A stretch of 19,493 nt of DNA from an uncultured Erysipelotrichaceae bacterium (GTDB taxonomy: Bacteria > Bacillota_I > Bacilli_A > Erysipelotrichales > Erysipelotrichaceae). The notes under the pieces are model-generated. The model saw nothing but the letters and a program-made list of their open reading frames with translations, searched no databases and had not been told where the DNA came from. Both the position numbers and the translations under genes were made by a program. Location of the stretch: positions 1 to 19,493 of the forward strand of contig CACZPD010000203.1 of NCBI GenBank assembly GCA_902782955.1, written 5' to 3'. Shown here one piece after another: positions 1,560 through 18,583 of this stretch (positions are counted from its first letter, which is position 1; each line of letters starts with the position of its first letter).

Positions 1560-1596
1560 AAAAAAAGCGATTCGCACATGAATCTCTTTTATTTTT
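1560..1596. terminator. Bidirectional Rho-independent terminator between two convergent genes
   Basis: AAAAGCGATTC (1563-1573) pairs with GAATCTCTTTT (1580-1590) around a 6-nt loop with one C/T mismatch. A-rich on the left and T-rich on the right, it can end transcription in both directions. It overlaps the last codons of the minus-strand patatin gene. Confidence 0.7.
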
Positions 1597-2485
1597 CCAG
1601 ATATGCTTTCAATGCCGGAAGGATCTCCTTTGCGTCTTCATATCCCAGTTTCCAGAGATTGCCCAGGACTTCCAGATCCTTTTCAAACCGTGCCATCCTT
1701 ACAGGCTGACTGGGCGCGATCACAAAGATCCTGCCGTTTTCCTCCATCGCATCCACCATATCCAGAAGGACGTTGTAATTAACGCGTTCCTCGCGCAGGC
1801 ATTTCTGGAAGCGCGGATAATTCCTGTACTCCCTCTCGATCAGCGGAAGCGGCGGGATGATCGACTTGCGGTAATCCCTTGCGCGTGTGCGCACGACGAC
1901 TATTTTTTCATAGTCATGTTCCAGAGCCCACGGCAGCGGGACGCGTACGGCACATCCGCCGTCCAGGTACTTACTGCCGCTGATCTCGACCGGTTCACTG
2001 ATATACGGGACTGTTGCGGATGCACGGATGGCCTGCAGGATATCCGGACTGCTCTTCTCAAAGTATTCAGCTTCCCCCGTTTCCAGATTTGTCGCGACTG
2101 CATAAAATCTTCTGCGCGGATCATAGAAGCGGTCATCCCGGAATGGTTCCTCTTCTGATAATGTATCAAAAAGATATGTAAATCCTGTGATTCCGTGATC
2201 GACGCGGTAAGCACCGATACCGACATACTTCGGGTCATGTCTGTGCCTCAGGTTGATCCTTGCGCAGCGGCCGATCTGTCCGGCAACATATCCCATCGCG
2301 GACATTGCGCCGGCACTGACCCCGATCGTCGTTTCAAAGTTGATATCATTTTCCATCAGCGCATCCAGTACGCCTTGTGTATATAAGCCTCTCCATGCGC
2401 CTCCTTCCAGCACCAGGCATCCCGGTGTAAGAATATCGGAAGCATCACCATGAGGTATTTCATCAAATCCTGAATACTGTTCCAT
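1589..2485 (-). CDS. Patatin-like phospholipase family protein (YjjU-like)
   Basis: Predicted serine lipid acyl hydrolase with a Ser-Asp dyad. From the chosen start (298 residues) it shows LEGGAWRG (oxyanion hole) near residues 27-34, GVSAG with nucleophile S57, and LDGG with catalytic D175. An ATIGVSAGA-like context and the early YVAGQIGR segment resemble the E. coli YjjU subgroup. The start is set at the ATG ending at 2485 because AAGAGG lies 6 nt upstream. A GTG ten codons earlier (2515) is in frame but lacks a well-spaced site. No signal peptide or membrane segment is seen, so it is probably cytosolic. It lies downstream of a HAD phosphatase gene on the same strand, with a terminator between. 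The physiological lipid is unknown. A second, unrelated-subtype patatin is encoded at 15985-17301. Confidence 0.88.
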   Translation of the reverse strand: MEQYSGFDEIPHGDASDILTPGCLVLEGGAWRGLYTQGVLDALMENDINFETTIGVSAGAMSAMGYVAGQIGRCARINLRHRHDPKYVGIGAYRVDHGITGFTYLFDTLSEEEPFRDDRFYDPRRRFYAVATNLETGEAEYFEKSSPDILQAIRASATVPYISEPVEISGSKYLDGGCAVRVPLPWALEHDYEKIVVVRTRARDYRKSIIPPLPLIEREYRNYPRFQKCLREERVNYNVLLDMVDAMEENGRIFVIAPSQPVRMARFEKDLEVLGNLWKLGYEDAKEILPALKAYLEK

Positions 2486-2538
2486 ACTGTACCTCTTACC
2501 CACAAAAGGATACACCTTTTTCTGAAAAATGCATGCAT

Positions 2539-3411: not shown

Positions 3412-3485
3412 GTCCTCATGGCGCAATTGGATAGCGTGTCAGATTCCGAATCTGGAGGTTGCGGGTTCGAGTCCCGCTGAGGACG
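3412..3485 (+). tRNA. tRNA-Arg (anticodon CCG, reads CGG)
   Basis: A cloverleaf folds cleanly. The acceptor GTCCTCA pairs with TGAGGAC. The D arm holds GCGCAATTGGATAGCG. The anticodon arm is TCAGA, loop TTCCGAA and TCTGG, giving anticodon CCG. The T arm is GCGGG, TTCGAGT and CCCGC. The discriminator base is G, and CCA is not encoded in the gene. It is the only RNA gene seen here and stands alone with its own terminator, which follows after a few bases. Confidence 0.95.
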
Positions 3486-3489
3486 CCTG

Positions 3490-5362: not shown

Positions 5363-6271
5363 TCAGTCCTCAAATTTCATTGTTTTTTTCTGCCCGTCAG
5401 TGGATATCACGATATTCGGAAAGATATTCCGGATGTCTTCTTCCCAGATTTCCGGATGGGGCATGCTGGTGCTGTAATGGGTAAACCAAAGCTCCCGGCA
5501 TTCTGCCTCTTTCGCGATTTCTGCCGCTTCCTGCATCATCATATGCTTGTTCTGCAGTGCTTTTTCCAGTTTTTCCGGATCGCCGTACATGCCTTCCAGA
5601 ATGCACAGATCAGCGTCTGCAGCATGTTCGGTTATTCCGGCAGTGGGTCTGGTATCGGTTGCATAGAGCATCTTCAGACCTCTCCTGTTTTCTCCGAGCA
5701 CCATATCCGGCGTATATGTAATGCCTTCGTATTCAGCTGTATTTCCTTTCTGCAGAATACTCCAGCATTTTACAGGCACATTATTGTTCTTTGCTTTCTC
5801 CACATCAAATTTGGGCTGCCGTGGAAGTGTGAACTCGTATCCGTAGCAAGGCACCCTGTGATCCAGATGAAAGGCAGTGATCTGCAATTCATCCAGGCTG
5901 AAGGATACTTCCCTCTCCCGGTATTCATAGGCATGCAGTTCAAAAGGAATATATCTGGCAATCTTCTGAACGCCGTCCAGAATCTCCGGAAGTCCTTTGG
6001 GACCGAAGATCCGCACCGGCTCCGTCCTGTCTGCCTTTGCCATGGACAGCAATAAACCAGGCAGTCCTGCAGTATGATCCGCATGAAAATGCGTCAGCAG
6101 GATCGTATCGATATGCCGGCATGAAAAACCCGCTTTATTCAGCGCGATCTGTGTGCCTTCTCCGCAGTCAACCAGCAGACTGCTTCCTTTATACCTGACA
6201 AGAAGCGATGTCAGCCATCTGTCAGGGATCGGGACAGTTCCGCCTGTACCAAGTAAACAAATATCCAACAT
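5363..6271 (-). CDS. rnz: Ribonuclease Z (tRNA 3' endonuclease)
   Basis: A 302-residue metallo-beta-lactamase-fold enzyme that removes 3' trailers from tRNA precursors, needed where CCA is not encoded, as for the tRNA-Arg nearby. The zinc site is clear: HFHADH with H61, H63, D65 and H66, then H138 in FHLDHRVPCYGY, D206 in YATDTRP and H265 in FTHYS. The N-terminus LLGTGGTVPIPDRW and LVDCGEGTQ are typical of bacterial short-form RNase Z. The segment LPRQPKFDVEKAK is in the tRNA-binding exosite position. The start is the ATG at 6271 that begins MLDICLLGT, because this matches the family N-terminus. The open frame continues upstream to 6667 but there it only shadows the ABC transporter gene. Upstream AGGT is a weak ribosome binding site. 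Only 27 nt separate the start from the preceding terminator. Confidence 0.95.
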   Translation of the reverse strand: MLDICLLGTGGTVPIPDRWLTSLLVRYKGSSLLVDCGEGTQIALNKAGFSCRHIDTILLTHFHADHTAGLPGLLLSMAKADRTEPVRIFGPKGLPEILDGVQKIARYIPFELHAYEYREREVSFSLDELQITAFHLDHRVPCYGYEFTLPRQPKFDVEKAKNNNVPVKCWSILQKGNTAEYEGITYTPDMVLGENRRGLKMLYATDTRPTAGITEHAADADLCILEGMYGDPEKLEKALQNKHMMMQEAAEIAKEAECRELWFTHYSTSMPHPEIWEEDIRNIFPNIVISTDGQKKTMKFED

Positions 6272-6298
6272 AAAATACCTATGCGTATATGTTAACAC

Positions 6299-6368: not shown

Positions 6369-7313
6369 TCAGACGGCTGCCGTCCACTTTGCGAACTCTT
6401 CCGGTGTTGCCAGAACAGAGTGTGTTTTGGAAAGATCGTGAAGTACGCCCAAAGAATAATCCACGCCTTCTTTTGCCTTATCATATGACAGTGCAACTCT
6501 CTGCTTTTCCACGATCGGGTTCGGCATCGGAATGGCCGAAAGCAGGGATTTTGTATACGGATGAATCGGATTCTGGAAGATCTCATCCGTCGTTCCTGTC
6601 TCAACGATATATCCCAGATGCATGACGCCGATCCGGTCGCTGATGTATTTGACCATGGAGAGATCATGCGCGATGAACATATAGGTAATACCCATTTCTT
6701 CCTGCAGATCCTTCATCAGATTGACGACCTGCGCCTGGATGGAAACATCCAGCGCTGAGATCGCTTCATCCGCGATGACCAGTTTCGGCTGCATGACCAG
6801 AGCTCTGGCGATACCGATACGCTGTCTCTGTCCGCCGGAGAACTGCTGCGGATAACGTGTAGCGTGTTCCCTTGACAGACCTACTTTTTCAAGGATCGCG
6901 TATACTTTTTCGTTGAGTTCCTGTTCACTGCTGTACAGCTTGTTGATCTCAAGGCCCTGGGCGATGATATCCCTTACTTTTTTACGGGGATTGAGACATG
7001 CCATCGGATCCTGGAAGATCATCTGCATATTTGTGCGCAGATGTTTTTCTTCAGCCGGTGAAAGTTTGCCGCTGATATCATGCCCGTCAAAGATGATCTT
7101 TCCGGCTGTCGGATCATACAGACGGATGATCGCTCTTCCGGTCGTGGATTTTCCTGAACCGGATTCTCCTACAAGACCGTATGTTTCACCGGGATAGATA
7201 TCAAAGCTGATGCCGTCCACGGCTTTTGTCGTATAGGTTCTGGAAATACGGAAATGCTGTTTAAGCCCTTCGACATGGAGGAGAGGTTCTGCATCATAAT
7301 TTACTTTAAGCAT
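6369..7313 (-). CDS. oppF: Oligopeptide ABC transporter ATP-binding protein OppF
   Basis: One of the two nucleotide-binding subunits that power peptide import at the inner face of the membrane. It is 314 residues with Walker A GESGSGKS at 49-56, Q-loop Q101 in IFQDPMACLNP, signature FSGGQRQR at 158-165, Walker B LVIADE at 178-183 with catalytic E183, and switch H216 in IAHDL. The C-terminal oligopeptide-type extension ends with a segment resembling Firmicutes AmiF/OppF (HSVLATPEEFAKW) and lacks cysteine-rich iron-sulfur motifs. It is the last gene of the operon and overlaps oppD by 8 nt (7306-7313). The terminator at 6299-6332 follows. Confidence 0.95.
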   Translation of the reverse strand: MLKVNYDAEPLLHVEGLKQHFRISRTYTTKAVDGISFDIYPGETYGLVGESGSGKSTTGRAIIRLYDPTAGKIIFDGHDISGKLSPAEEKHLRTNMQMIFQDPMACLNPRKKVRDIIAQGLEINKLYSSEQELNEKVYAILEKVGLSREHATRYPQQFSGGQRQRIGIARALVMQPKLVIADEAISALDVSIQAQVVNLMKDLQEEMGITYMFIAHDLSMVKYISDRIGVMHLGYIVETGTTDEIFQNPIHPYTKSLLSAIPMPNPIVEKQRVALSYDKAKEGVDYSLGVLHDLSKTHSVLATPEEFAKWTAAV

Positions 7314-8400
7314 ACTTTTCGTTCTCCTTCTTCATCTTTTCCAGGCGGTCTTTCAGCTGTTCCGGCAGTTCGTACTGCGGCGCTCTCGGATCGCACAGCC
7401 ATGAAGCTACACGATGCTGTCCGCCGACGTTGAACATCGGAGGCTCAGCTTTATAATCGATCGCGAGCGCATACGGATTACGCGGTGCGAACGCGTCACC
7501 GACGATGTCCTCCATCAGATCCGGCGGTGTGCCCGGGATCGCGAACAGACGCTTGGAATTCGTGTCGGTATCCGGCATGGAAGCGAGCAGTCCCCATGTA
7601 TACGGGTGACGCGGATCATAGAAGATCTCTTCGATCGCTCCTTTTTCGATAATACGGCCGGCATACATAACGTCAACGTAATCCGCTACCTTGGCAACGA
7701 CGCCGAGGTCATGCGTGATATAGATGACACTGATGTTATGTTCTTTCTGGAGTTTCTTGATCACTTCAAGGATCTTGGCCTGAATGGTAACGTCCAGTGC
7801 AGTTGTAGGCTCATCGCAGATCAGGATATCCGGATTGCAGGCAAGCGCGATCGCAATGACGACACGCTGCCGCATACCGCCTGAAAGCTGGTGCGGATAC
7901 TGCTTGAAACGTTTTTCCGGATCTTCTATACCTACTTCCGTCAGCAGGTGGATCGCTCTTTCTTTCGCCTCTTCCTTTGTGATCTTTTCATGGATCAGCA
8001 TGCCTTCGGTAATCTGCTTGCCGATGGTCATGGTCGGATCCAGTGAAGTCATAGGATCCTGGAATACCATGGCGATATGCTTTCCGTTAAAGCGGTAACG
8101 GATCTCTTTCTGGGAGAGCTTTGTCATATCCACAGTTTCCTGTTCTCCTTTTTCGTTAATGAATGTATAATCGATCTTCCCGCTTTCGATTGTACCGTTA
8201 TTTGCGAGAATACCCATGATTGTCTTGACAGTTACCGATTTTCCGGATCCGGATTCACCGACGATTGCAATGGTTTCACCCTTAAACAGATCCATTCTTA
8301 CACCACGAATCGCATTGACTTTACCATTTGCGGTCTGGAAGGAAATATTCAGATCACGTACAGATAATACTCTGTCTTTCTTATCTCTTTTTGTTGTCAT
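7306..8400 (-). CDS. oppD: Oligopeptide ABC transporter ATP-binding protein OppD
   Basis: A 364-residue ATPase subunit that pairs with OppF. Walker A is GESGSGKS at 48-55, the Q-loop is Q114 in VFQDPMTSLDP, the signature is LSGGMRQR at 172-179, Walker B is ILICDE at 192-197 with E197, and the switch histidine is H230. The C-terminal region (about 290-340) has the oligopeptide-ABC layout PPDLM, APRNPYA and EPPMF. The four cysteines that bind a 4Fe-4S cluster in many DppD/OppD proteins are here D302, N308, D315 and S333, as in other Firmicutes Opp/Ami proteins. The start has GGAGG 6 nt upstream and lies 9 nt after the oppC stop. It overlaps oppF by 8 nt. Confidence 0.95.
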   Translation of the reverse strand: MTTKRDKKDRVLSVRDLNISFQTANGKVNAIRGVRMDLFKGETIAIVGESGSGKSVTVKTIMGILANNGTIESGKIDYTFINEKGEQETVDMTKLSQKEIRYRFNGKHIAMVFQDPMTSLDPTMTIGKQITEGMLIHEKITKEEAKERAIHLLTEVGIEDPEKRFKQYPHQLSGGMRQRVVIAIALACNPDILICDEPTTALDVTIQAKILEVIKKLQKEHNISVIYITHDLGVVAKVADYVDVMYAGRIIEKGAIEEIFYDPRHPYTWGLLASMPDTDTNSKRLFAIPGTPPDLMEDIVGDAFAPRNPYALAIDYKAEPPMFNVGGQHRVASWLCDPRAPQYELPEQLKDRLEKMKKENEKYA

Positions 8401-8409
8401 ACATTCCTC

Positions 8410-9441
8410 CTAGTGTTTCTGGTTCGGATCGAACGCATCGCGAAGACCATCCGCAAACAGGTTGAAACTCAGCATCAGTAATGCCAGTACAATGATTGCA
8501 CTGAAAATCATATACGGATGTACCGTCAGAGATTTGTATCCATCTGAAATCAATGTTCCCAGCGAAGCTGCCGGAGCAGGAATACCTAAACCCATAAAGG
8601 AAAGATACGCTTCCGTGAAGATCGCACTGGGCACCGAGAACATCGCCATAGTAATCAGCTGTCCGAAGATATTCGGAAGTATATCCTTAAAAATGATCGA
8701 AAAATTCTTCGCACCGAGTGTTCTGGATGCCAGAATATACTCTGCTTCTTTCAGTTTCAGTACCTCAGCCCTTGAAATACGGGACATACCGATCCATCCG
8801 GTAATCATGAGTGCGAAGATGATTGAAGACATACCCGGAGGAAGTACCAGTCCGAGAAGAGTGACGAGGACCAGCGTTGGGATACCATTAAGAATCTCAA
8901 CAAAACGCTGCATGATCATATCGACCTTTCCTCCAAAATAACCGGAGATCAGACCGTACGACATACCAATGATAATATCGATAATAACAGCCACGAAGGC
9001 AATAAACAGCGAAATTCTCGTTCCCTCCCAAACTCGCGTAAAGAGGTCTCTTCCCAATGTATCTGTACCGAACCAGTAATATATGTTATCCAGTCCCTTT
9101 TCAGCATAGATATTTCTTCCATACTCATATCCGTTCATGAAACCGATTTTTTCCAAACCCGGAATACGCGGCGGAAGTCCTTGGTTTGCCAGATCCTGTG
9201 TATAGTATGTACGTCCGGAGATCATTGGGCCGATGATCGCCATCAGGATAATCACAGAAATGATAATCAGTCCGATGACAGCACCTTTATTTTTCGAGAA
9301 ATTGATCCAGACATCTTTCAGGAAAGATGTTTGTCTGTATACTTTATCTTTCAGCTTGACATTTTCCTGCACAAAGACAAAATCTTCCGGATCGTAGTCG
9401 TTCTCGATAATAGGCACATGCTTTTCAAATGTTTCACTCAT
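8410..9441 (-). CDS. oppC: Oligopeptide ABC transporter permease OppC
   Basis: A membrane subunit of 343 residues. A cytoplasmic N-terminal stretch of about 55 residues precedes the first membrane helix (GAVIGLIIISVIILM). An extracytoplasmic loop with PPRIPGLE and YYWFGTDTLGRDLFTRVWEG follows, typical of OppC. The coupling (EAA) motif sits in EYILASRTLGAKNFSIIF ahead of the last helices, where it contacts OppD/OppF. The start chosen is the ATG at 9441 because AGGAGGG lies just upstream. The open frame extends 20 codons further but would overlap oppB without a good ribosome binding site. It follows the oppB stop by 1 nt, so translation is probably coupled. Confidence 0.94.
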   Translation of the reverse strand: MSETFEKHVPIIENDYDPEDFVFVQENVKLKDKVYRQTSFLKDVWINFSKNKGAVIGLIIISVIILMAIIGPMISGRTYYTQDLANQGLPPRIPGLEKIGFMNGYEYGRNIYAEKGLDNIYYWFGTDTLGRDLFTRVWEGTRISLFIAFVAVIIDIIIGMSYGLISGYFGGKVDMIMQRFVEILNGIPTLVLVTLLGLVLPPGMSSIIFALMITGWIGMSRISRAEVLKLKEAEYILASRTLGAKNFSIIFKDILPNIFGQLITMAMFSVPSAIFTEAYLSFMGLGIPAPAASLGTLISDGYKSLTVHPYMIFSAIIVLALLMLSFNLFADGLRDAFDPNQKH

Positions 9442-9442
9442 T

Positions 9443-10378
9443 TTAGCTGCCCTCCTTCGCAACACGAATACGCGGATCGATAATACCGTACAGGATATCA
9501 ATAATCAGCATCATAACAATATACATAGCGGAATAAACAAAAGCACACGCAATGGTAACATTATAATCATTACTCTGAATGGCAGTGACCATCATCGTGC
9601 CGATGCCGGGAACACCGAATACCTTCTCAACGACCATGGAACCTGTCAGAAGATTAACCAGGATAGGACCCATGATAGTAATAATTGGAATAAGTGTATT
9701 CCGGAGCGCATGCTTCAGGATCAGATCTCTCTGACGCACACCTTTCGCCTGAACAAGGAGAATGTAATCTGAACCGAGAACATCGATCATTTCAGACCGG
9801 GTAAATCTCGAAACGTTTGCCATGGGACTCATTGCAAGAGCAATCATCGGACCGATAAAACTCTTGGCAACAATTTTCGAATTATACAAGATAGGTATCC
9901 ATCCAAGCTTAAAACCGACAAAATACGCCAGCAAAAGCGCGAATACATACGCAGGCACAGACACGCCAAGAATCGAAACGATAGAACAAAGAGTATCGAT
10001 CCATGAGTTATGTCGAAGAGCCGCTGCTATTCCGAGGCCTAAGCCAATCGTTGTACCCAGCAGCATTCCCAAAGCACCTACACGGATGGAAACACTAAGA
10101 GGTCCTTTCAGCATATCTGCGACTGCTTTGTTCTTATTCAAAACATACGAGTTTCCTAGATCGCCTTTCATCATAGCTCCCAGATATTTGAAAAACCGGA
10201 TGATAAATGGCTTATCCAGACCGTATTTTGTATATAAAAGAGCTTTCTGTGCTGCTGTTAGTTTCTCATCGTTAAACGGAGATCCCGGCATAAAGTCCAG
10301 CATCAGAAACAAAACAAATATAATCGCAGACAAGGTTAGGATACTGATCAGCACTCTTTTCAGTATATATTTGGACAT
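9443..10378 (-). CDS. oppB: Oligopeptide ABC transporter permease OppB
   Basis: A membrane subunit of 311 residues with about six helices, beginning with a helix at residues 8-30 (typical OppB/DppB N-terminus ILKRVLISILTL). LGNSYV in the first outer loop and the EAA coupling loop AKGVRQRDLILKHALRN are diagnostic. The C-terminal GVPGIGTMMVTAIQSNDYN is also conserved. The start has AAAGGAAAC upstream. It is separated from oppA by 96 nt that contain a strong hairpin, and is followed after 1 nt by oppC. It forms the membrane channel as a heterodimer with OppC. Confidence 0.95.
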   Translation of the reverse strand: MSKYILKRVLISILTLSAIIFVLFLMLDFMPGSPFNDEKLTAAQKALLYTKYGLDKPFIIRFFKYLGAMMKGDLGNSYVLNKNKAVADMLKGPLSVSIRVGALGMLLGTTIGLGLGIAAALRHNSWIDTLCSIVSILGVSVPAYVFALLLAYFVGFKLGWIPILYNSKIVAKSFIGPMIALAMSPMANVSRFTRSEMIDVLGSDYILLVQAKGVRQRDLILKHALRNTLIPIITIMGPILVNLLTGSMVVEKVFGVPGIGTMMVTAIQSNDYNVTIACAFVYSAMYIVMMLIIDILYGIIDPRIRVAKEGS

Positions 10379-10411
10379 AAACTGTTTCCTTTCTTCTATA
10401 GCATATAAACA

Positions 10412-10440
10412 TAATAGAGCGGATTATCCCCGCTCTATTA
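10412..10440 (-). other. Intercistronic stem-loop between oppA and oppB
   Basis: An 11-bp perfect stem (TAATAGAGCGG at 10412-10422 with its complement at 10430-10440) closes a 7-nt loop. No long T-run follows on the minus strand, so it is not a full terminator. Such hairpins between a binding-protein gene and permease genes commonly protect the upstream mRNA or attenuate transcription, giving more OppA than OppBCDF. That role is inferred here. Confidence 0.75.
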
Positions 10441-10474
10441 CGTCAGTGGAAATACTTAATGCCTGATCAGAAGA

Positions 10475-12157
10475 TTATTCCATAACCTTCTGGTTCAGAT
10501 TCAGTCTCCATGCATAACCCTGAAGTCTCTGTGTGAAGCCTGGGTCTGATTTGTACTGATCAACGAGGTCGCCTGTCAGAGTAACGACATCGGTATTGCC
10601 CTGCTGGTAGGACAGCGCTGCAGACTGTGCTTCAGAGACAAATGTGAAGACGAGCTCATCTGCATAATCTTTCTGATTTTCTGCATCCCAGTAATTCGGG
10701 TTCTTTGTGAATGTATATTCGTGATTTTCTTCCCAATTGGAGAATACATACGGTCCAACATAGAGCAGATCATCAAGGCTCTGAGCATAAGTATCTTTGT
10801 GAGCGTTGAAGAACTCTTCATTGAGCGGGAAGAATGACGGGAATGCCATCAGACCGAGGGCAAATCCGCACGGACGGTCAAGAGTAACAACGAATGTATG
10901 ATCATCTGTTGCTTCTACACCAAGTTCTTCCATCGGTTTATCGCCGTCGTGTGTAGCTTTTGCGTTCTTGACACCAATTGTTTCAAGAATGAATGCGTAT
11001 TCAGACTGGAGTTCCGGATCATTCAGACGTCTCCATCCAAAGACGAAATCATTTGCTGTTAACGGCGTGCCGTTGGACCATGTAACACCCTCACGGATCT
11101 TGAATGTATAAACTGTGCCGTCATCGGAAATATCCCAGGACTCTGCGAGGTCTTCGACCGGCTGTGCATTTTCATCGAGTTTTGCCAGACCGCCGATGCA
11201 GAGAGACTGCATGATGAAGGAACCGCCGTCTGTTGCGACATGGTGATCCATCGTGTTCAGGTCAGCGTTGATGGCAACTTTGAGTGTCTTATCTGCTCTG
11301 TCAACGGTAACTTCACGGTAGGAGTCAACACCTGCGTTGTGGAATTCGATTCCCGAGACTGCAGGATTGATCAGCATAGCGCTGCCGTTCTGGAAAACCG
11401 GGATAATACCCATATCATCAATGATGAGCTTTTCAGCAGCAATCAGATCTGCCCATCTCTTTTCCGGATCAGCAGCATCTTCACCGACTTCTGCCTTTTC
11501 AAGCAGTGCATCATATTCATCGTTGAAATAGTAGTTGTTATAGCCAGACTGTTTGGAATAGAACAGATCCAGATATGTCTGCGGGTCAGCATAGTCAGGG
11601 CCCCATCTTGTCAGACCGACCTGATATGTCAGACCATTCATCATATCCAATCTTTCTTTCTTGGTCTTGGAAACGAGAGTAACATTGATTCCCAGGTTAT
11701 CCTGCCACATCTGCTGAATAGCTGCACAAACTTTTCCAGGTGCTTCGGAGTCTGTTTCATAAAGGAGTTCAATAGAGATATTATCAACACCGAGTTCCTT
11801 CTTTGCTTCTTCAATCAGTTTTTTTGCTTCTTCAGGATTGTATTCGATCAGGTTTCCGACCGTTTCACGATAGTCTTTTCCGTCCGGACCATATGCGAAG
11901 TCTTTCGGGATAAATCCTTCCGCAGCAATGGAGCCGTCTTTGAGGACGAGATCCGCAATTTCCTGTCTGTTAATGGACATGGACAGTGCTTTACGAAGAT
12001 TCAGGTTCTGATACTGTTTACTGAGTTCTTCGTTGATTTTTGTTTCTGCAGTTTCACCTTCACCACCTTCTGGTGCCGCCGGTTCAGAACTGCCGCCACT
12101 GCATCCTGCAAGCATTGCAAGTGCAAGAGCTGCTGCAAGTAATTTCTTGTACTTCAT
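10475..12157 (-). CDS. oppA: Circularly permuted oligopeptide-binding lipoprotein OppA (SBP family 5)
   Basis: A 560-residue extracytoplasmic peptide receptor for the OppBCDF importer. The signal peptide ends in the lipobox LAGC (lipid-modified C19), and a Gly/Ser/Pro/Glu-rich linker runs to about 40. The lobes are in swapped order. Residues 42-285 carry what is normally the C-terminal half: NLRKALSMSINRQEI at 53-67, then GLTRWGPDYADPQTYLDLF at 181-199, where D188 matches the peptide-amine-binding Asp of E. coli OppA, then IIPVFQN at 251-257. Residues 286-560 carry the normal N-terminal half: TLKVAINADLNTMD at 291-304, AESWDISDDGTVYTFKIREG at 338-357, GTPLTANDFVFGWRR at 363-377 and GPYVFSNW at 468-475, ending YAWRLNLNQKVME at the hinge strand. 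Each part occurs once and the length is normal. The start has GGGAGG upstream. See the findings. Confidence 0.93.
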   Translation of the reverse strand: MKYKKLLAAALALAMLAGCSGGSSEPAAPEGGEGETAETKINEELSKQYQNLNLRKALSMSINRQEIADLVLKDGSIAAEGFIPKDFAYGPDGKDYRETVGNLIEYNPEEAKKLIEEAKKELGVDNISIELLYETDSEAPGKVCAAIQQMWQDNLGINVTLVSKTKKERLDMMNGLTYQVGLTRWGPDYADPQTYLDLFYSKQSGYNNYYFNDEYDALLEKAEVGEDAADPEKRWADLIAAEKLIIDDMGIIPVFQNGSAMLINPAVSGIEFHNAGVDSYREVTVDRADKTLKVAINADLNTMDHHVATDGGSFIMQSLCIGGLAKLDENAQPVEDLAESWDISDDGTVYTFKIREGVTWSNGTPLTANDFVFGWRRLNDPELQSEYAFILETIGVKNAKATHDGDKPMEELGVEATDDHTFVVTLDRPCGFALGLMAFPSFFPLNEEFFNAHKDTYAQSLDDLLYVGPYVFSNWEENHEYTFTKNPNYWDAENQKDYADELVFTFVSEAQSAALSYQQGNTDVVTLTGDLVDQYKSDPGFTQRLQGYAWRLNLNQKVME

Positions 12158-12215: not shown

Positions 12216-12521
12216 GAAAAAATCCATTCCTTTTTCACATAAATGAAAAGTATTCATTATTTAAAATGAAACACTTTTCAAATATTTCGACAAGAAAAGA
12301 CAGCGCTTTCATAAATCACTGCCCTTCTGATATTAATGATTTTCAGTTTTCAGATTAGTAAAGTGAAAACGGTTAATCTGCATCGATATAACTAAAAAAT
12401 TTGAAAACTGAAATAAATATGATCCTTTGTATGAGTGAACCTTACGGAAAAAGCAAAATCGTATATTAACGTTTCTTTTCCGTGGAATTATCCATAAGCG
12501 TTTTTATTATCTCTCTTTTTC
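12216..12521. other. AT-rich intergenic region with TGAAA/TTTCA palindromes upstream of oppA
   Basis: No coding frame or RNA gene is seen in this 306-nt gap. It contains several palindromes: AATGAA-AAGTA-TTCATT at 12242-12258, TGAAA-CACT-TTTCA at 12267-12280, and a perfect 12-bp inverted pair TTTCAGTTTTCA (12341-12352) with TGAAAACTGAAA (12402-12413). Nested inside that pair is CAGATTA (12351-12357) with TAATCTG (12374-12380). These sit upstream of the oppA promoter and could bind a regulator, but no known operator is matched. No terminator with a clear T-run is seen after ppaC. Confidence 0.5.
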
Positions 12522-14156
12522 TTATAGTTCCTGGATCATCGCTGACAGTTTCGGCATCATCTGCTGTTTTCTCGAGATGATGTGCGGATCGAATCCCGTA
12601 TGTTCATCAAAATTAGATTCAATAAGTTCTGAAACTACTTTAGAAAGCGGCCCGGAGAAGACGAAATAGGAACCTTCGCCCATTACATCCGTAAACAGCA
12701 TGACAAGCAGATCCAGTCCCTTTGTCTTCTGTTCCTCTTCCAGATTCTTGATGAAAGGTGGCAGGATCGCCTGGACATCTTCCATACGTGAGTAATTGGT
12801 CTGTCCGATGGCGATCTTGTACTGACCGATCTCATAATTCTTCAGGTCTCTGTTCAGGATCTCATGCGGCGTGGCATCCTTCAGGGCGATGGAAGCACCG
12901 AGCATTTCCCTTGCATAGGCATCGATATCCTCGATCCCTGCCCTGTCGGCCAGCCATCTTGCCGTCATTTTATCCCGCTCCGTTGTTGTTGCAGACTTGA
13001 AATTCAGCGTATCTGAAAGGATCGCGCTCAGCAGGAGACCGCACATATTTTTGTCCGGCAGCATGCCGTTTTCCTGATAGAGATTTGAAATGATCGTGCA
13101 TGTGCATCCGCATTTCTGGTTGCGGTATTCGATTGGCTTGCTGGTAGTGACATCCCCGATATGATGATGGTCGATGATTGCCACGATCTCCGCCTTGTCG
13201 ATGTTGTTGATGACCTGTGTCATGGCGCTGTGGTCAACAAGCACAAATTTGCGCTTCTGATAGTTTCTCGTATGATACCGGGAGAAAGCCCCGACGATAT
13301 TATCATTGTCATCCAGTACCGGATAGGAACGTACACGGGTGCTTGCCATCCGGACGATCACATCTTCCACATAATCGGAATCCTTGAACGCAATTACCTT
13401 GTTTGACATGATTTCCTTTACGGCGTAGCTTTCCGTGATGACCCTTGCGGTATGCATGGTGTCATGCTGCGTTGTAATAACAGCGCATTTGTTCTCGCTT
13501 GCCTTCTGCATGACAAAATCGGAAACAGCCTGCCCGCAGGTAACGACGAGGCACTTGGCCCCCATGTCGATGACCATATTCTGCTTCTGTTCGCCGCTTG
13601 AAGTGATGACGATGCTGTCTTTCATGTTGTAGATGGAAGCTTCCTTCCCGTCAAGGGCAACGATATAGATCTTTCCGTTGGTGCTGAAGTAGGACGGGGA
13701 GTATTGAATCTGGCCGCCGATCGTACGGGCAATATTGCCCAGTGTGGCGGAAGACATCAGCTGGTCGAGATCTGTTTCAGGATGGATCCTTACACGGGAA
13801 AGATCGCTGGCTGTGCATACACCTACAAGCTTGTTGTTTTCATCTACGACACAAAGCGACCTGTTGCGTGTCTTGAGCATCATATGCCAGGCGTGATGGA
13901 CTGTTTCATCCACACGGACAATCGTCGGCTCATCCATTTCGATATCCTTCAGCATCGCTCTTGCGTCTGTCAGAAGCAGCGGATTTTCCTGTCCGAAGCG
14001 TTTCAGGATAAATTTGGTTTCTTCATTCAGCGGTCCCTGCCGGCAGGGAATCGCAGAATATCCGAGACGATTCAGCATATCGGCATATGTAATGGCCGAG
14101 CAGATGGAATCACTGTCCGGATTTTTGTGTCCGATGACGTAAATGTTATTGTTCAT
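12522..14156 (-). CDS. ppaC: Manganese-dependent inorganic pyrophosphatase, family II, with CBS-DRTGG-CBS regulatory insert
   Basis: A cytosolic enzyme that hydrolyses pyrophosphate to two phosphates, pulling biosynthetic reactions forward. It has 544 residues in the layout DHH part 1, CBS, DRTGG-like, CBS, DHH part 2, DHHA2. Metal-site residues are visible: H10, D14 and D16 in GHKNPDSDS, D308 in LVDHS, D329-H330-H331 in IIDHHHIGD, and D382 in LSDTLNF. The DHHA2 domain ends with the substrate-binding ISRKQQ (R529, K530). The insert at about 65-300 has CBS-like segments (SLCVVDENNKLVGVCTASDL and RSYPVLDDNDNIVGAFSR) around a DRTGG-like domain. In characterised clostridial relatives these bind adenine nucleotides and tune activity; here this is inferred. 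The start has GGAGG 6 nt upstream and lies 12 nt after the previous gene in a five-gene operon. Confidence 0.95.
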   Translation of the reverse strand: MNNNIYVIGHKNPDSDSICSAITYADMLNRLGYSAIPCRQGPLNEETKFILKRFGQENPLLLTDARAMLKDIEMDEPTIVRVDETVHHAWHMMLKTRNRSLCVVDENNKLVGVCTASDLSRVRIHPETDLDQLMSSATLGNIARTIGGQIQYSPSYFSTNGKIYIVALDGKEASIYNMKDSIVITSSGEQKQNMVIDMGAKCLVVTCGQAVSDFVMQKASENKCAVITTQHDTMHTARVITESYAVKEIMSNKVIAFKDSDYVEDVIVRMASTRVRSYPVLDDNDNIVGAFSRYHTRNYQKRKFVLVDHSAMTQVINNIDKAEIVAIIDHHHIGDVTTSKPIEYRNQKCGCTCTIISNLYQENGMLPDKNMCGLLLSAILSDTLNFKSATTTERDKMTARWLADRAGIEDIDAYAREMLGASIALKDATPHEILNRDLKNYEIGQYKIAIGQTNYSRMEDVQAILPPFIKNLEEEQKTKGLDLLVMLFTDVMGEGSYFVFSGPLSKVVSELIESNFDEHTGFDPHIISRKQQMMPKLSAMIQEL

Positions 14157-14168
14157 AATTCCTCCTGG

Positions 14169-14648
14169 TCACTGCACATAAGAGAACACTGAGCCGGTTT
14201 TCGTCTCCGTCCCTTCCTGTGAGATAAAATGTCCTGCGGCGATCGTAAACTGAAGCAGATACCCTTCCGGAACCCCCATCATTTCCATGATCTTCCGGTA
14301 ACGGTACTGATTCAGCGTATCGTTGAGTCTGAAGGAAAAGAAATACTGCATGCCGTTTTCCTGCATATACCGCTGAAGACTGCCGGCAGCTTTCAAAGTA
14401 TCTTCCGAAGTATAAGCGGTGCTTCCGTCTGCGAAAGCAAGTATGACCAGAGGGGCATCGAGATGACATTTTTCCTCTCCGGCAAACGCCTCGATCTCAT
14501 TCAGAAGATCACGGTTTCTGAAAAACACGAAATGATATGGTCTTTTTTCACTTTGATAATCTGTTTTCATGACAGCTTCTTCCATTTCCTGCAGAACGGA
14601 CGAAGAAATGCTTTCTTCACGAAAACCTGTGATCCGGATCTGTCCCAT
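14169..14648 (-). CDS. Divergent, shortened nitroreductase-like protein
   Basis: A 159-residue protein resembling the nitroreductase/FMN oxidoreductase fold but shortened. Matches are the N-terminal helix pattern FREESISSSVLQEMEEAV, the strand RPYHFVFFRNRDLL at about 36-49, APLVILAFADG at about 65-75, the central helix AAGSLQRYMQENG, and MGVPEGYLLQFTIAAGHF near 123-140, which fits the family's G-P-x-G-Y and A-x-x-x-G pattern. The basic RRSxR motif that holds the FMN phosphate is not recognisable, so flavin binding is doubtful. The start overlaps the upstream map stop region (TGA then ATG one base later) without a good ribosome binding site, so translation is probably coupled to map. ppaC follows after 12 nt. 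It could be a flavin-free regulatory or structural relative; function unknown. Confidence 0.6.
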   Translation of the reverse strand: MGQIRITGFREESISSSVLQEMEEAVMKTDYQSEKRPYHFVFFRNRDLLNEIEAFAGEEKCHLDAPLVILAFADGSTAYTSEDTLKAAGSLQRYMQENGMQYFFSFRLNDTLNQYRYRKIMEMMGVPEGYLLQFTIAAGHFISQEGTETKTGSVFSYVQ

Positions 14649-14649
14649 A

Positions 14650-15486
14650 TCAGTATGTCAGGATCTCATTCCCTGTTTCGGTGATCAGGATCGTATGTTC
14701 CCACTGGGCGCTGTCCGATCCGTCTGACGTATAGATCGTCCATCCGTTATAGCGGTCGATCACAACGCCTGCCTTGCCGGCATTGATCATCGGTTCAATG
14801 GTAAAGACCATGCCCGGTACCAGGACCATGCCTGTTCCCTTTTTGCCGATATGGCTGATGAAAGGATCTTCATGGAAGTCATTGCCTACGCCATGTCCGC
14901 CAAGTTCCCTGACAACACCGTAACCGAGTGAATGCGCGTATTTGGAAATGGCATAGCCGATATCCCCTACCGTTGCCCACGGCTGGGCAGCCGCTATTCC
15001 GATCTCCAGACATTTTTTCGTCTCTTCGGTCAGCTTCTTTCTTGCATGTGAAACATCACCGATCATGAACATGCGGGAAGCATCCGCATAATATCCTTTA
15101 TAGATCGTCGTGACATCCACATTGATGATATCCCCGTCATGCAGTTTGCGCAGACGGCTCGGGATACCGTGGCATACTTCCTCATTGATGGACGTGCATA
15201 CATGTTTGGGGAAGCCTTCATATTTGTAAGGCGCGCAGACCGCATCATGCGCATGCGTAAATTCCTTTACGATGTTGTCGATCTCCTGTGTGCTCATGCC
15301 GGCATGTATGTGTTTTGCGACTTCATCCAGCACTGCTGTGTTGATCTTCCCTGCCTCGCGGATCCCTTCGATCTGTTCAGGTGTTTTGATCAGGGAAAGA
15401 TCCGGTACTTCCTTTCCGTGTTTTCTGAGCTGTTCCATGCGTTCCAGAACTGATTCCGGAATATCATTTCGTCTTGTTTCTGTCAT
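14650..15486 (-). CDS. map: Type I methionine aminopeptidase
   Basis: Removes the initiator methionine from nascent proteins using a dinuclear metal centre. It has 278 residues, and all key residues are visible: H106 in EVCHGIPS, D124 in INVDVT, D135 in YADASRMF, H198 in GGHGVGNDFHEDP with H205, E231 in FTIEPMI, and E263 in AQWEHTIL. Relative to the E. coli enzyme there is an N-terminal extension of about 33 residues before IKTPEQIEGIREAG, charged and probably helical, with no zinc-finger cysteines. Its start overlaps the dut stop as ATGA (15483-15486), showing translational coupling. It is placed in a patatin-dut operon rather than in the ribosomal protein region where map often lies, so a second map may exist elsewhere. 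Confidence 0.96.
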   Translation of the reverse strand: MTETRRNDIPESVLERMEQLRKHGKEVPDLSLIKTPEQIEGIREAGKINTAVLDEVAKHIHAGMSTQEIDNIVKEFTHAHDAVCAPYKYEGFPKHVCTSINEEVCHGIPSRLRKLHDGDIINVDVTTIYKGYYADASRMFMIGDVSHARKKLTEETKKCLEIGIAAAQPWATVGDIGYAISKYAHSLGYGVVRELGGHGVGNDFHEDPFISHIGKKGTGMVLVPGMVFTIEPMINAGKAGVVIDRYNGWTIYTSDGSDSAQWEHTILITETGNEILTY

Positions 15487-16007
15487 TCTTTTTTCCTCAT
15501 ATCCGTACTCCCGAATCCGCCGGTCCTTTTTTCCTCTGCTGTATCGTCTTCGGTAATTGCATAGGCAAGAAAGATGCCCTGGACCATCCCGTCAGACTGC
15601 CGGATCGAAAGTGTTTTTCCTTCTCTTGTATCATTTGTGATCTTGCAGAAAATATGTCCTTCATTATCTGCATGATAATAATCGCTGTCGATGATGCCGA
15701 CCGTGTTGTTCAGCTGCATGCGGTATTTAAAGCCCAGTGAACTGCGCGGGAAAAGCATCAGGACGTATCCTTCTTTCATTTTAACACGGATCCCCGTCGG
15801 AATGAGTGCCTCTTCCTGCGGCAGAAGTGTTATATCAGCCGGCGCAAAAAAATCATAACCGGCCGATCCTGCTGTTGCCCGCTTCGGCATTTTCAGATTA
15901 TCATATATTTTCTTTACCGTTTCCGCAGAAGCTTCCGGATCAAGCTTTTTCCATCCTTCCGCGAACTGTCCGAAACTGACTTTTTCAAATTTCGCTGCTT
16001 TTTCCAT
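15483..16007 (-). CDS. dut: dUTP diphosphatase (dUTPase)
   Basis: Hydrolyses dUTP to dUMP and pyrophosphate, keeping uracil out of DNA and feeding dTMP synthesis. It has 174 residues and all five trimeric dUTPase motifs: AGYDFFAP near 49-56, PRSSLG at about 88-93, GIIDSDYY with NEGHI, GMVQGIFLAY, and the C-terminal RTGGFGST that closes over the active site. An N-terminal extension of about 45 residues (FEKVSFGQFAEGW) is of a type seen in other Firmicutes dUTPases. The start has GGAGG about 9 nt upstream and lies inside the end of the patatin gene (overlap 15985-16007). Its stop overlaps the map start. The pyrophosphate product is a substrate of PpaC encoded in the same operon. Confidence 0.94.
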   Translation of the reverse strand: MEKAAKFEKVSFGQFAEGWKKLDPEASAETVKKIYDNLKMPKRATAGSAGYDFFAPADITLLPQEEALIPTGIRVKMKEGYVLMLFPRSSLGFKYRMQLNNTVGIIDSDYYHADNEGHIFCKITNDTREGKTLSIRQSDGMVQGIFLAYAITEDDTAEEKRTGGFGSTDMRKKE

Positions 16008-17301
16008 CCGCTGATTCCTCCGGGAGTTCTTTCATCATACATGTAACAAAATCTGCCAGTGCCTGCTCAAAAGGATAAACAGTAAGTGCCATGTTTTCTG
16101 TCAGGATCCTGTGTTCCGGAAAGAAATTCGCATGGATCATCTTTTCTATGATTCCTTTGGTATTCAGTGTTTTGGCATATTCCGCCAGATCCCTGATCCC
16201 CTGCATCGCAGGCATGTTATCGTAATTTTTATCAACCGCACCGGCAAATTCGGCCAGGATCCGGTTTCTCGCCTCTTCATAGGTGTAGAGCCAGGTATCA
16301 TCCATTCCGCATATGCGCATCAGATGATCCATCATCCCGTAAAAATAATCCCTGTATTCCAGATGTGTTTTGTCCATGTATTCAAGCAGCCGGTTGCGGA
16401 TATGCTGGCGGGAACGGAAACGCTCACCGATGTTGGAAGCCAGTTTGATCCTGGTTTCCAGCATCAGCATCTGCGGATACCACTTATGGAAGAATGCCGG
16501 CAGTTCCGCTTTTTCAAACGTATATACGTAACCTTCATACACGCCGTAAAACTTGCACGCATCCAGATAACCGATCCGGAAGGAATGTTCCAGCAGGCTT
16601 CTGTCAAACTCCAGAAACCGAGGAAGATCCTGGGTCGGGGAAATGTAATCGATCCGGGGTCTGTCCCGGTAACCGGGGTGCGTGGCCTCGTGTCTGAGAT
16701 CGATAGCGATCACCTCTTCGGCACCTTGCCGTAAAGCAAAATCCACCGGCAAATTGTCAAAGTATCCGCCGTCCACATATTCCTGTCCGTCGATGACTTT
16801 CACCGGGAATGCAGGAAATGCGCTGGCACTGGCGATCAGCCAGTCCTTTCCCCTTTCACGCATCATTTCCTTGGTGACATAGACCGGTTCATGTTTCGGA
16901 TGGGTGGCTGTGATACAGCCGAAATCGATATCCGAGGCAAAGAATTTTTCCGGATCGAATTTCTCCTCTACCTGCTTTTCAAACGGGGAGATATCAACTC
17001 CTCTGTCTTTAAAATAGCTTACAGCTGTATTCAGTAATGATTCTCTTTCACTGACGATCTTATTCAGGCTGATGTCAAACGGAATGTAGCTTCCGATAAT
17101 ATCGTCTGCTTTCAAATGTGTATAAATATCAAAAAATCCCGCGTAGTCTTTCTGTACGAGCATGAGAGCGTTCAGCGCGCCGACGCTGGTGCCGAAAACC
17201 ATGTTCCAGTCATTCTTCCCCAAGTCGATCAGTGCCCTGATCACACCCGCCTGATAAACTCCTTTTGTTCCGCCGCCGGCAAGTACCAATGCTTTTTTCA
17301 T
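15985..17301 (-). CDS. Patatin-like phospholipase family protein with long C-terminal region
   Basis: Predicted Ser-Asp lipid acyl hydrolase of 438 residues. Motifs are LAGGGTKGVYQAG at 7-19 (oxyanion hole), GTSVG at 37-41 with nucleophile S39, and VDGGYFDNLP at 176-185 with catalytic D177. The N-terminus starts directly at the first strand with no signal peptide, and the Lys-Lys-Ala-Leu start fits the family. Residues 200-438 are a helical C-terminal region of unknown role. It is clearly a different subtype from the patatin at 1589-2485. It is the first gene of the operon with dut, map, the nitroreductase-like gene and ppaC, and overlaps dut by 23 nt. The ATG is preceded by GAGG at short spacing. 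It diverges from ddl across a 76-nt gap. Confidence 0.9.
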   Translation of the reverse strand: MKKALVLAGGGTKGVYQAGVIRALIDLGKNDWNMVFGTSVGALNALMLVQKDYAGFFDIYTHLKADDIIGSYIPFDISLNKIVSERESLLNTAVSYFKDRGVDISPFEKQVEEKFDPEKFFASDIDFGCITATHPKHEPVYVTKEMMRERGKDWLIASASAFPAFPVKVIDGQEYVDGGYFDNLPVDFALRQGAEEVIAIDLRHEATHPGYRDRPRIDYISPTQDLPRFLEFDRSLLEHSFRIGYLDACKFYGVYEGYVYTFEKAELPAFFHKWYPQMLMLETRIKLASNIGERFRSRQHIRNRLLEYMDKTHLEYRDYFYGMMDHLMRICGMDDTWLYTYEEARNRILAEFAGAVDKNYDNMPAMQGIRDLAEYAKTLNTKGIIEKMIHANFFPEHRILTENMALTVYPFEQALADFVTCMMKELPEESADGKSSEI

Positions 17302-17323
17302 GTCCTCATTCTATCACGCAGCA

Positions 17324-17352
17324 CTGTAATTTTCCGATTATTTTAGTATAAT
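17324..17352 (+). promoter_or_regulatory. Candidate promoter for ddl
   Basis: TATAAT at 17347-17352 is a perfect -10, with a weak -35 (CTGTAA, 17324-17329) at 17-nt spacing. The expected start is about 20 nt before the ATG, with AGAGG just upstream of it. I could not assign the promoter of the divergent patatin operon in the same gap. Confidence 0.55.
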
Positions 17353-17377
17353 GTTCTGGTATATCTGAGAGGTGTTT

Positions 17378-18583
17378 ATGAAACTGAATGTAGCTGTTTT
17401 TTTCGGCGGTGAGTCTGTGGAACATGAAGTAAGCATCATTTCCGCGAATCAGGCGATCCGTGCTATGGATAAAGATAAATACAACGTTATACCTGTTTAT
17501 GTATCCAAAGACCGCAAAATGTACTGCGGTGAACTTCTGGATAAAGTGGAGACCTTCAAGGACCTGAATGACGCCGTTTCCAAGAGCACACAGGTAACGA
17601 TCATCCGCGAAGACAACAAAGTCATCATCAGACCGGTCAAAACAAAACTGTTCGGTGCGAAGGACATCGGCACAATCGATGTGGCGATACCGGTCATGCA
17701 CGGCACCAACGGTGAAGACGGAACGATCCAGGGATTCCTTGAAATGATGAAGGTCCCGTATGCGGGATGTGATCTGTACGGCGCGGCTGTCGGGCAGGAC
17801 AAAGTGCTGCAGAAGCACATCCTGAATGACAATGGTCTCCCGCTGACCAACTGGTTCTGGGTATACGGCGAAGAGATGGACGATCATCCGGAAGAAGTTC
17901 TGCGCAAGGCACACAAGCTGATCTACCCGGTCATCCTCAAGCCTGCGCGCACCGGTTCTTCCGTCGGTATTTCCGTTGCCCGCAATGACGAAGAGTATAT
18001 CCAGTGCTTTGAAGAAGCGAGACAGTATGACGAAAAAGTCATCACGGAAAAAGTCGTAAAGCCGATGGTCGAGATCAACTGCTCTGTCCTGGGTGATTCC
18101 TATCACGCAGAAGCAAGTGTCCTCGAACAGGTAGGGCATACTTCCTCCACCGATCTTCTGGATTTCCAGCAGAAATACCAGGGCGGCGGTAAATCCGCGA
18201 AATCCGGTCCTTCCAAAGGCATGGCTTCCGCAGCCAGGATCGTACCGGCACCGGTCAGCGAAGGGATCACGAAGCAGATCCAGGAACTCGCGCTGAAGAC
18301 ATTCCGCGTGCTCGGCGCAGGCGGTGTCTGCCGGATCGATTTCATGATGGACGCAGAAACAAAACGCGTCTATGTAAATGAGATCAATACGATCCCGGGT
18401 TCCCTCGCCTTCTATCTCTGGCAGGAAAGCGGCATCTCCTTCCGGGAACTGATGGACAAACTTGTGGAACAGGCTCTGGAAAGAGAAAGAAGAAGGTCCA
18501 GAATGACTTTCTCATATGATACGAACCTGCTGAGCACATACAGCGCGGAGAGCGCAAAAGGCGCGAAATCATCCAAGTTATAA
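17378..18583 (+). CDS. ddl: D-alanine--D-alanine ligase family protein
   Basis: An ATP-grasp ligase that joins two D-alanines for peptidoglycan precursors, in the cytoplasm. It has 401 residues, longer than the usual 300-370. Motifs are FFGGESVEHEVSI with E15, VMHGTNGEDGTIQG at 107-120, KPARTGSSVG at 188-197, RIDFMM with metal ligand D321, and NEINTIPGS with E335 and N337. The omega-loop segment is DFQQKYQGGGKSAKSG at about 262-277, longer than in E. coli Ddl and with Phe where E. coli has Tyr216. The C-terminus carries about 30 extra, basic and Ser/Ala/Lys-rich residues. The ATG at 17378 is chosen because AGAGG lies 5 nt upstream; a GTG two codons earlier overlaps that site. D-Ala-D-Ala is the expected product, but a D-Ala-D-X specificity is not excluded. 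Confidence 0.93.
   Translation: MKLNVAVFFGGESVEHEVSIISANQAIRAMDKDKYNVIPVYVSKDRKMYCGELLDKVETFKDLNDAVSKSTQVTIIREDNKVIIRPVKTKLFGAKDIGTIDVAIPVMHGTNGEDGTIQGFLEMMKVPYAGCDLYGAAVGQDKVLQKHILNDNGLPLTNWFWVYGEEMDDHPEEVLRKAHKLIYPVILKPARTGSSVGISVARNDEEYIQCFEEARQYDEKVITEKVVKPMVEINCSVLGDSYHAEASVLEQVGHTSSTDLLDFQQKYQGGGKSAKSGPSKGMASAARIVPAPVSEGITKQIQELALKTFRVLGAGGVCRIDFMMDAETKRVYVNEINTIPGSLAFYLWQESGISFRELMDKLVEQALERERRRSRMTFSYDTNLLSTYSAESAKGAKSSKL

What the first reader, a model, noticed from the sequence alone, without database searches (positions are those of the whole stretch)
10475..12157. Natural circular permutation of the oligopeptide-binding protein OppA
Seen directly: one uninterrupted 560-codon frame with a normal signal peptide and lipobox, in which segments of the SBP family 5 fold occur in swapped order. 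NLRKALSMSINRQEI, RWGPDYADP and IIPVFQN, which in ordinary OppA (E. coli, B. subtilis) belong to the second half, come first. TLKVAINADLNTMD, AESWDISDDG and GTPLTANDFVFGW, which normally follow the signal peptide, come after residue 286. No segment is missing or duplicated. Known: cluster C binding proteins have one conserved lobe order. Inference: a tandem duplication of oppA, or an equivalent rearrangement, followed by loss of the outer halves and re-attachment of the signal peptide, produced a true circular permutant. I know of no described natural case in this family.
Basis: partly seen in the sequence, partly recalled or inferred. Interest (0 to 1): 0.93.

Follow-up and report, generated by a model that had tools for sequence, protein, structure and literature searches.

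The report
OppA repeatedly rewired by circular permutation
This bacterial gene encodes a peptide-catching surface protein of the OppA family whose parts run in rotated order compared with ordinary OppA, and the same kind of rotation has likely arisen several separate times in related bacteria and been undone at least once, which would make OppA a natural test case for how evolution rewires a working protein.

Summary
ORF 10475-12157 (minus strand, 560 codons) is a family 5 binding lipoprotein whose segments run 2-3-4-1 instead of 1-2-3-4, each present once. A predicted structure (pLDDT 87.9) superposes on solved OppA lobes in the same swapped order. It is not an assembly artefact: eight further protein clusters (69-89% identical) and five MAG loci share the order. 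In those five genomes it is the only close oppA, oppB follows it, and dN/dS is low (0.07-0.18).

The larger result is recurrence. Trees of rotated sequences place three permuted classes (A = window, B, C) in separate canonical clades (AU p 9.7e-7 for A+B, 1.7e-59 for A+C). Four more classes (D-G) occur in the same GTDB class. All three possible rotations of four segments exist: 2-3-4-1 (A, B, D, F), 3-4-1-2 (C, E), 4-1-2-3 (G). Canonical-order proteins nested in class B look like reversions. The window's opp operon looks recombined: a contig with 92% identical upstream genes carries a canonical oppA. Route of origin and function are inferred, not shown.

The parts
10475..12157 (-). Circularly permuted oppA, 560 codons, segment order 2-3-4-1
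12038..12157 (-). Signal peptide, lipobox (LAGC) and low-complexity linker, residues 1-40
   Evidence: sequence; low pLDDT 1-6 and 13-36
11300..12037 (-). Residues 41-286: segments 2, 3 and 4, which in ordinary OppA form the second half
   Evidence: model 41-258 on 3o6p 311-526
11285..11317 (-). Joint of the old C-terminus to the old mature N-terminus, about residues 281-291
   Evidence: joint alignment
10478..11299 (-). Residues 287-560: segment 1, which in ordinary OppA follows the signal peptide; ends at the hinge (...RLNLNQKVME)
   Evidence: model 286-560 on 6npo 46-317
10413..10439 (-). Inverted repeat (terminator-like, seen by eye) between oppA and oppB
   Evidence: sequence; not tested by folding
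9443..10378 (-). oppB, permease
   Evidence: PF00528
8410..9444 (-). oppC, permease
   Evidence: PF00528 and PF12911
7306..8400 (-). oppD, ATPase
   Evidence: PF00005 and PF08352
6369..7313 (-). oppF, ATPase
   Evidence: PF00005 and PF08352
12239..12518 (.). Stretch in which the window changes from an opp operon nearest L001/G002 to a backbone nearest L010 (recombination edge or contig joint)

Best explanation
The gene encodes a family 5 substrate-binding lipoprotein whose segments run in circularly permuted order, and it likely works as the peptide receptor of the oppBCDF importer encoded directly downstream. Shown: order 2-3-4-1, a short fusion of the old C-terminus to the old mature N-terminus, new chain ends at the hinge between the lobes, conserved operon position, purifying selection. 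Predicted: the chain folds into the ordinary two-lobed OppA. Inferred: the old termini lie side by side in lobe I and can be joined, the hinge tolerates new ends, peptide binds in the cleft as in other OppAs, and the lipid anchor now holds lobe II instead of lobe I. Inferred origin: a fully or partly duplicated oppA gave signal peptide and linker fused to the C-half, followed in frame by the N-half, and the redundant ends were lost. The disordered linker behind the lipobox would accept a new start almost anywhere, which would explain why the family was permuted repeatedly (classes A-G, three rotations) and could go back (canonical-order rows inside class B). The operon then likely moves between related genomes by recombination.
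For: Order. Independent assemblies; class B on a 580,541-base contig, E and F on contigs of 2,165,257 and 3,195,757 bases. Fold: pLDDT 87.9 and 86.5, superposition in swapped order. Selection: dN/dS 0.138-0.181 in 6 class A pairs, 0.070-0.136 in 5 class B pairs. Operon: oppB follows in 5 of 5 class A, 9 of 9 class B and the one class C locus. Only close copy: 5 of 5 class A genomes, 9 of 9 class B and the class C genome (other matches at most 32% identical). Independent origins. A tandem pair of canonical oppA genes exists in L013, so raw material for duplication is present.
Against: No binding or transport data. No doubled gene or remnant found, so the route is open. In the N-half tree class A is split by canonical P0016/P0034 (99/96), which asks for recombination or a second event. 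The reversion rests on p 0.0097 with a group named after the first tree was seen. E and G are long branches. Fold evidence is a prediction; the class C model used an alignment that mixes both orders.
Confidence: 0.85

Rival explanations
1. Assembly artefact: the swapped order comes from a misassembled tandem oppA pair in a metagenome.
For: The window and the class A relatives come from metagenome assemblies, and tandem oppA pairs exist in relatives (L013).
Against: Nine class A clusters and 58 class B proteins share the order; breaks are at the same place within a class; E and F lie on contigs of 2.2 and 3.2 Mb; frames are intact and under purifying selection.
Confidence: 0.02
2. One ancient permutation, with canonical order regained many times.
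For: A, B, D and F share the same cut at the hinge.
Against: AU tests reject A+B and A+C as one clade; A, B, C, D and F each have canonical sisters; C, E and G are cut elsewhere.
Confidence: 0.04
3. Fission and fusion: oppA split into two separately exported halves that were later fused in the other order.
For: The C-lobe can be solved as a separate chain (3o6p, 227 residues), so halves may fold alone.
Against: No pair of separate signal-peptide-bearing half genes was seen in the loci read, though this was not searched systematically.
Confidence: 0.2
4. The canonical rows inside class B are not reversions; canonical order was kept and class B arose several times.
For: Recurrence is seen elsewhere in the family.
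Against: On the tree I count three changes (one gain, two returns) against seven gains by hand.
Confidence: 0.2
5. The mosaic at 12239-12518 is a chimeric contig joint, not recombination.
For: It is a metagenome contig and the change of nearest relative is sharp.
Against: Identity to L002 also drops on the other side of the operon (83.0% at 6383-11938, 68.8% at 5386-6272), and gene order PPase-oppA is the same in L001, L010, L015 and L040.
Confidence: 0.25

Closest known systems
OppA / SBP_bac_5 (PF00496), cluster C binding proteins, e.g. PDB 6npo, 5kzt, 8are
   Same: All segments, lipoprotein export, operon with oppBCDF, predicted fold
   Different: Segment order rotated; chain ends at the hinge; anchor on lobe II (inferred)
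TpMglB-2 (Tp0684) of Treponema pallidum, 'Type Ic' binding protein (PMC4990184, passages read)
   Same: A lipid-anchored ABC-importer binding protein with natural circular permutation; its authors raise anchoring as a possible reason
   Different: Type I / cluster B sugar-binding fold, cut inside the N-lobe, poor sequence match to its canonical counterpart; no independent repeats or reversion were told in the passages I saw
Other natural circular permutants (saposin/swaposin, DNA methyltransferases, transhydrogenases; PMC3320104, part 1 of 3 read)
   Same: Rotated order with kept fold; duplication and fission-fusion as the two main models
   Different: Here permuted and canonical forms are orthologues at one operon slot, in class A and C with canonical sisters at about 70-86% identity, with several rotations in one family

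Membership tests
SBP_bac_5 / OppA family | Match to PF00496 above the gathering score | tested here: met
   284.7 bits against 32.4, in two stretches
SBP_bac_5 / OppA family | Ordinary N-to-C segment order | tested here: not met
   2-3-4-1
SBP_bac_5 / OppA family | Two-lobed fold | tested here: met
   Predicted only:
SBP_bac_5 / OppA family | Lipoprotein in an opp operon | tested here: met
   Lipobox LAGC; oppB, C, D, F downstream
SBP_bac_5 / OppA family | Peptide binding | not testable with these tools
   No assay
NCBIfam OppA equivalog (NF011684) | Score above the curated cut-off | tested here: not met
   213.7 against 947 bits; canonical sisters were not scored as a control
Circular permutant | Rotated order, no segment lost or doubled | tested here: met
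Circular permutant | Same three-dimensional fold as the canonical form | tested here: met
   Predicted only: each half superposes on solved OppA in swapped order
Permutation by duplication | Doubled or partly doubled intermediate | tested here: inconclusive
   Separate tandem genes in L013; no doubled frame among rows listed (largest 620 aa) or ORFs
TpMglB-2-like 'Type Ic' binding proteins | Type I / cluster B fold | tested here: not met
   The window is family 5; the listed PDB matches are OppA/DppA-like

The most novel reading that the evidence does not exclude
OppA of these bacteria is a hot spot of circular permutation: at least five and probably seven independent rotations (A, B, C, D, F firmly; E and G probably), covering all three non-trivial orders of a four-segment scheme, with at least one return to canonical order, and with permuted and canonical alleles traded at one locus by recombination. 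In 7 of 7 classes the cut lies at the hinge or in lobe II, so each event would move the lipid anchor from lobe I to lobe II, which may be what selection favours.
Probability: 0.55. Interest if true: 0.9.

Novelty: new variant of a known kind. Interest (0 to 1): 0.82.

Why it matters
Natural circular permutants are usually compared across remote relatives, where the route and the cost can no longer be read (my general knowledge). Here permuted and canonical forms are orthologues at one operon slot, as close as 86% identical in class C, and the event recurs, so how permutation happens, whether it is neutral and whether it can be undone become directly testable. For transport biology it separates anchor position from fold: the membrane tether of a binding protein would have been moved to the other lobe several times. 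For annotation, 6 of the 7 permuted class B proteins that carry an NCBI name are called 'hypothetical protein', while both canonical rows with an NCBI name there are called peptide transporter binding proteins.

Tried and rejected
Assembly artefact: rejected. One origin for A, B and C: rejected by AU tests. Remnants of missing ends beside permuted genes: none; tblastn of five canonical proteins against 900 bases upstream and up to 1300 downstream of 15 permuted loci gave a best E of 0.97. G432, taken at first as a spanning hit, proved canonical and was dropped. L019 (a fragment at a contig end) was not classified. The class C break points were compared with two canonical relatives by eye at DNA level; the letters allow more than one reading, so no claim is made. 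A NurA match of the first half (E 5e-4, below the family cut-off) was taken as chance. Names of the genomes of D-G: the tools give none. Foldseek and VIA-align list mostly the larger half of the permuted models. Literature: eight searches in a library without most subscription journals; 'circular permut' with 'OppA' gave 0 papers, and with 'oligopeptide-binding protein' 1 paper, seen as a listing only.

Full report
What is there. The minus-strand ORF 10475-12157 encodes 560 residues: signal peptide with lipobox LAGC, a low-complexity linker, then family 5 binding-protein sequence. Pfam SBP_bac_5 matches in two stretches; given alone, the first half matches profile 209-367 (residues 44-206), and the second half matches 2-211 (residues 333-557). 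The three PDB alignments printed are split and swapped. With four HMMs cut from an alignment of canonical family members the window reads seg2-seg3-seg4-seg1, each once; 3 of 3 canonical controls read 1-2-3-4.

Not an artefact. A protein search (4111 hits, best 120 listed) contains nine clusters with the permuted order, the window's own and eight more at 69-89% identity, and 111 canonical ones. A scan of GTDB-species contigs gave 19 loci: 5 permuted, 13 canonical, 1 fragment not classified. The five are MAGs titled Solobacterium sp. or uncultured Erysipelotrichaceae; two titles name sheep gut. In each of those five genomes the permuted gene is the only close match. The rest are short or partial matches at 26-46% identity, one match to the signal peptide alone in G005, and in G002 a 65-residue piece that is the 5' end of the same gene on another contig. 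MAGs are incomplete, so absence is weak evidence. The window's own genome is not held.

Selection and operon. dN/dS is 0.138-0.181 in six class A pairs and 0.070-0.136 in five class B pairs (dS 0.68-1.79, so partly saturated). The window gene is followed by oppB, oppC, oppD and oppF. oppB follows the permuted gene in 5 of 5 class A, 9 of 9 class B and the one class C locus. Within the roughly 3 kb read for each, classes E and F have oppB downstream, and D and G have oppF/oppD-like genes upstream.

Recurrence in the family. A search of 272 genomes of the family (119 with a match at E <= 1e-40) shows permuted genes in 15: five class A, nine class B, one class C (orders checked). Of 338 proteins retrieved by three searches, 68 are permuted: 9 A, 58 B, 1 C, and 270 are canonical (the searches were seeded with permuted queries, so this is no frequency). 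A careful tree of 65 rotated sequences forces five changes of order on supported branches: A is one clade (97/98), C sits beside canonical P0102 (100/97), B with four canonical rows is another clade (100/100) whose sisters are canonical. AU tests reject A+B (p 9.7e-7) and A+C (p 1.7e-59) as one clade. Trees of each half alone place B and C the same way. Against a simple history of class A: in the N-half tree A is split in two, with canonical P0016/P0034 beside P0006-P0009 (99/96), while in the C-half tree A is one clade (100/99).

Reversion. Canonical-order proteins P0260-P0263 fall inside class B in the whole tree and in both half-trees. Holding the permuted B rows together without them is rejected at p 0.0097 (this group was named after the tree had been seen). 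Genome G134 carries the same form (90% to P0260, single match 1-533, canonical by HMM). Their hinge reads NINH...[YF][QK]N, like most class B ends and starts shown. One or two returns to canonical order are the simplest reading; without reversion I count seven gains by hand on the tree.

Beyond the family. A profile of the joint (old C-end fused to old N-start) was run over 395 genomes of the GTDB class and, in a wider form, over 392 of the phylum (the two samples overlap). Besides A and B it hit G274, G287, G323, G303 and G305 and G279; G432 was a false alarm. ORF checks show D (G274) and F (G323, G303, G279) as 2-3-4-1, E (G287) as 3-4-1-2 and G (G305) as 4-1-2-3. D has a canonical sister in G287 (100/99) and F has canonical sisters (100/100); E and G are on long branches and their places are unsure. 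3 of 8 genomes in the family of G303 have the F form. 1 of 61 in the family of G305 has the G form; seven others hold relatives at 34-39%, six of which were printed as 1-2-3-4. In the order of G287, 1 of 4 genomes has the E form. E and F lie on contigs of 2.2 and 3.2 Mb. In all, 21 of 124 distinct ORFs with family 5 segments in the loci read are permuted. Other phyla could not be reached with the searches at hand.

Where the cuts lie. A, B, D and F are cut between segments 1 and 2, at the hinge; C and E between 2 and 3; G between 3 and 4. Segments 2-4 make up lobe II and the last strand of lobe I (domain limits of OppA recalled). So in 7 of 7 classes the chain, and hence the lipid anchor, starts at lobe II. 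The joint profile cannot see cuts inside the stretch it covers (roughly the last 70 and first 90 residues), so the pattern is suggestive only.

Mosaic locus. Contig L010 matches the window's upstream genes at 91.7% nucleotide identity over 5,629 bases (window 12519-18146), but its oppA is canonical, and its oppA and oppB-D match at 73-78%. L001 and G002 have permuted oppA and match the window's opp operon at 83%, but their backbones at 68-72%, apart from one 86-base stretch at 76%. Synonymous divergence mostly crosses the same way: window-L010 dS 0.28-0.58 in five flanking genes against 0.90-2.42 in opp genes; window-L001 1.31-2.42 against 0.57-1.12. The exception is oppD, 0.90 to L010 (148 codons) and 1.04 to L001. 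The operon, or its oppA-oppC part, has likely been exchanged between related genomes; a chimeric contig joint between 12238 and 12519 is the alternative.

How it most likely works and arose. Shown: order, conservation, operon slot. Predicted: fold. Inferred: peptide binding and delivery to OppBC as in other OppAs, with the anchor on lobe II; origin from duplicated copies with loss of ends. The linker behind the lipobox would tolerate any downstream start and the old termini would meet in lobe I, which may be why the event recurs. No intermediate was found: the largest open frame in the rows listed is 620 aa, and no ORF carries the segments twice over.

Known work. TpMglB-2 of Treponema pallidum is a published circular permutant of a different binding-protein cluster, also lipid-anchored, and its authors raise anchoring as a possible reason (PMC4990184, passages). 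The general models are in PMC3320104 (part 1 of 3 read). No report of a permuted OppA appeared in the searches, in a library that lacks most subscription papers.

Noticed in passing
window 3412-3487: tRNA-Arg (anticodon ccg), the only RNA gene found; a 188-codon ORF reads partly through it.
   Followed up: no
window 10413-10439: An inverted repeat between oppA and oppB, with similar ones by eye in most of the 15 permuted loci printed; it may set the ratio of binding protein to permease.
   Followed up: partly
L013 7789-9426 and 9600-11249: Two canonical oppA genes in tandem on one strand, a possible substrate for permutation by duplication.
   Followed up: partly
P0061: A 453-aa protein that joins helix-turn-helix domains to a piece of canonical OppA; a database oddity or a real fusion.
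   Followed up: no
L140 615-2456 (G274, class D): This permuted protein ends in a repetitive acidic tail (STDDE repeats), unlike the other classes.
   Followed up: no
window 1589-2515 and 15985-17301: Two proteins that look patatin-like (GGG/GxSxG motifs by eye) in one 19-kb window; labels recalled, not searched.
   Followed up: no
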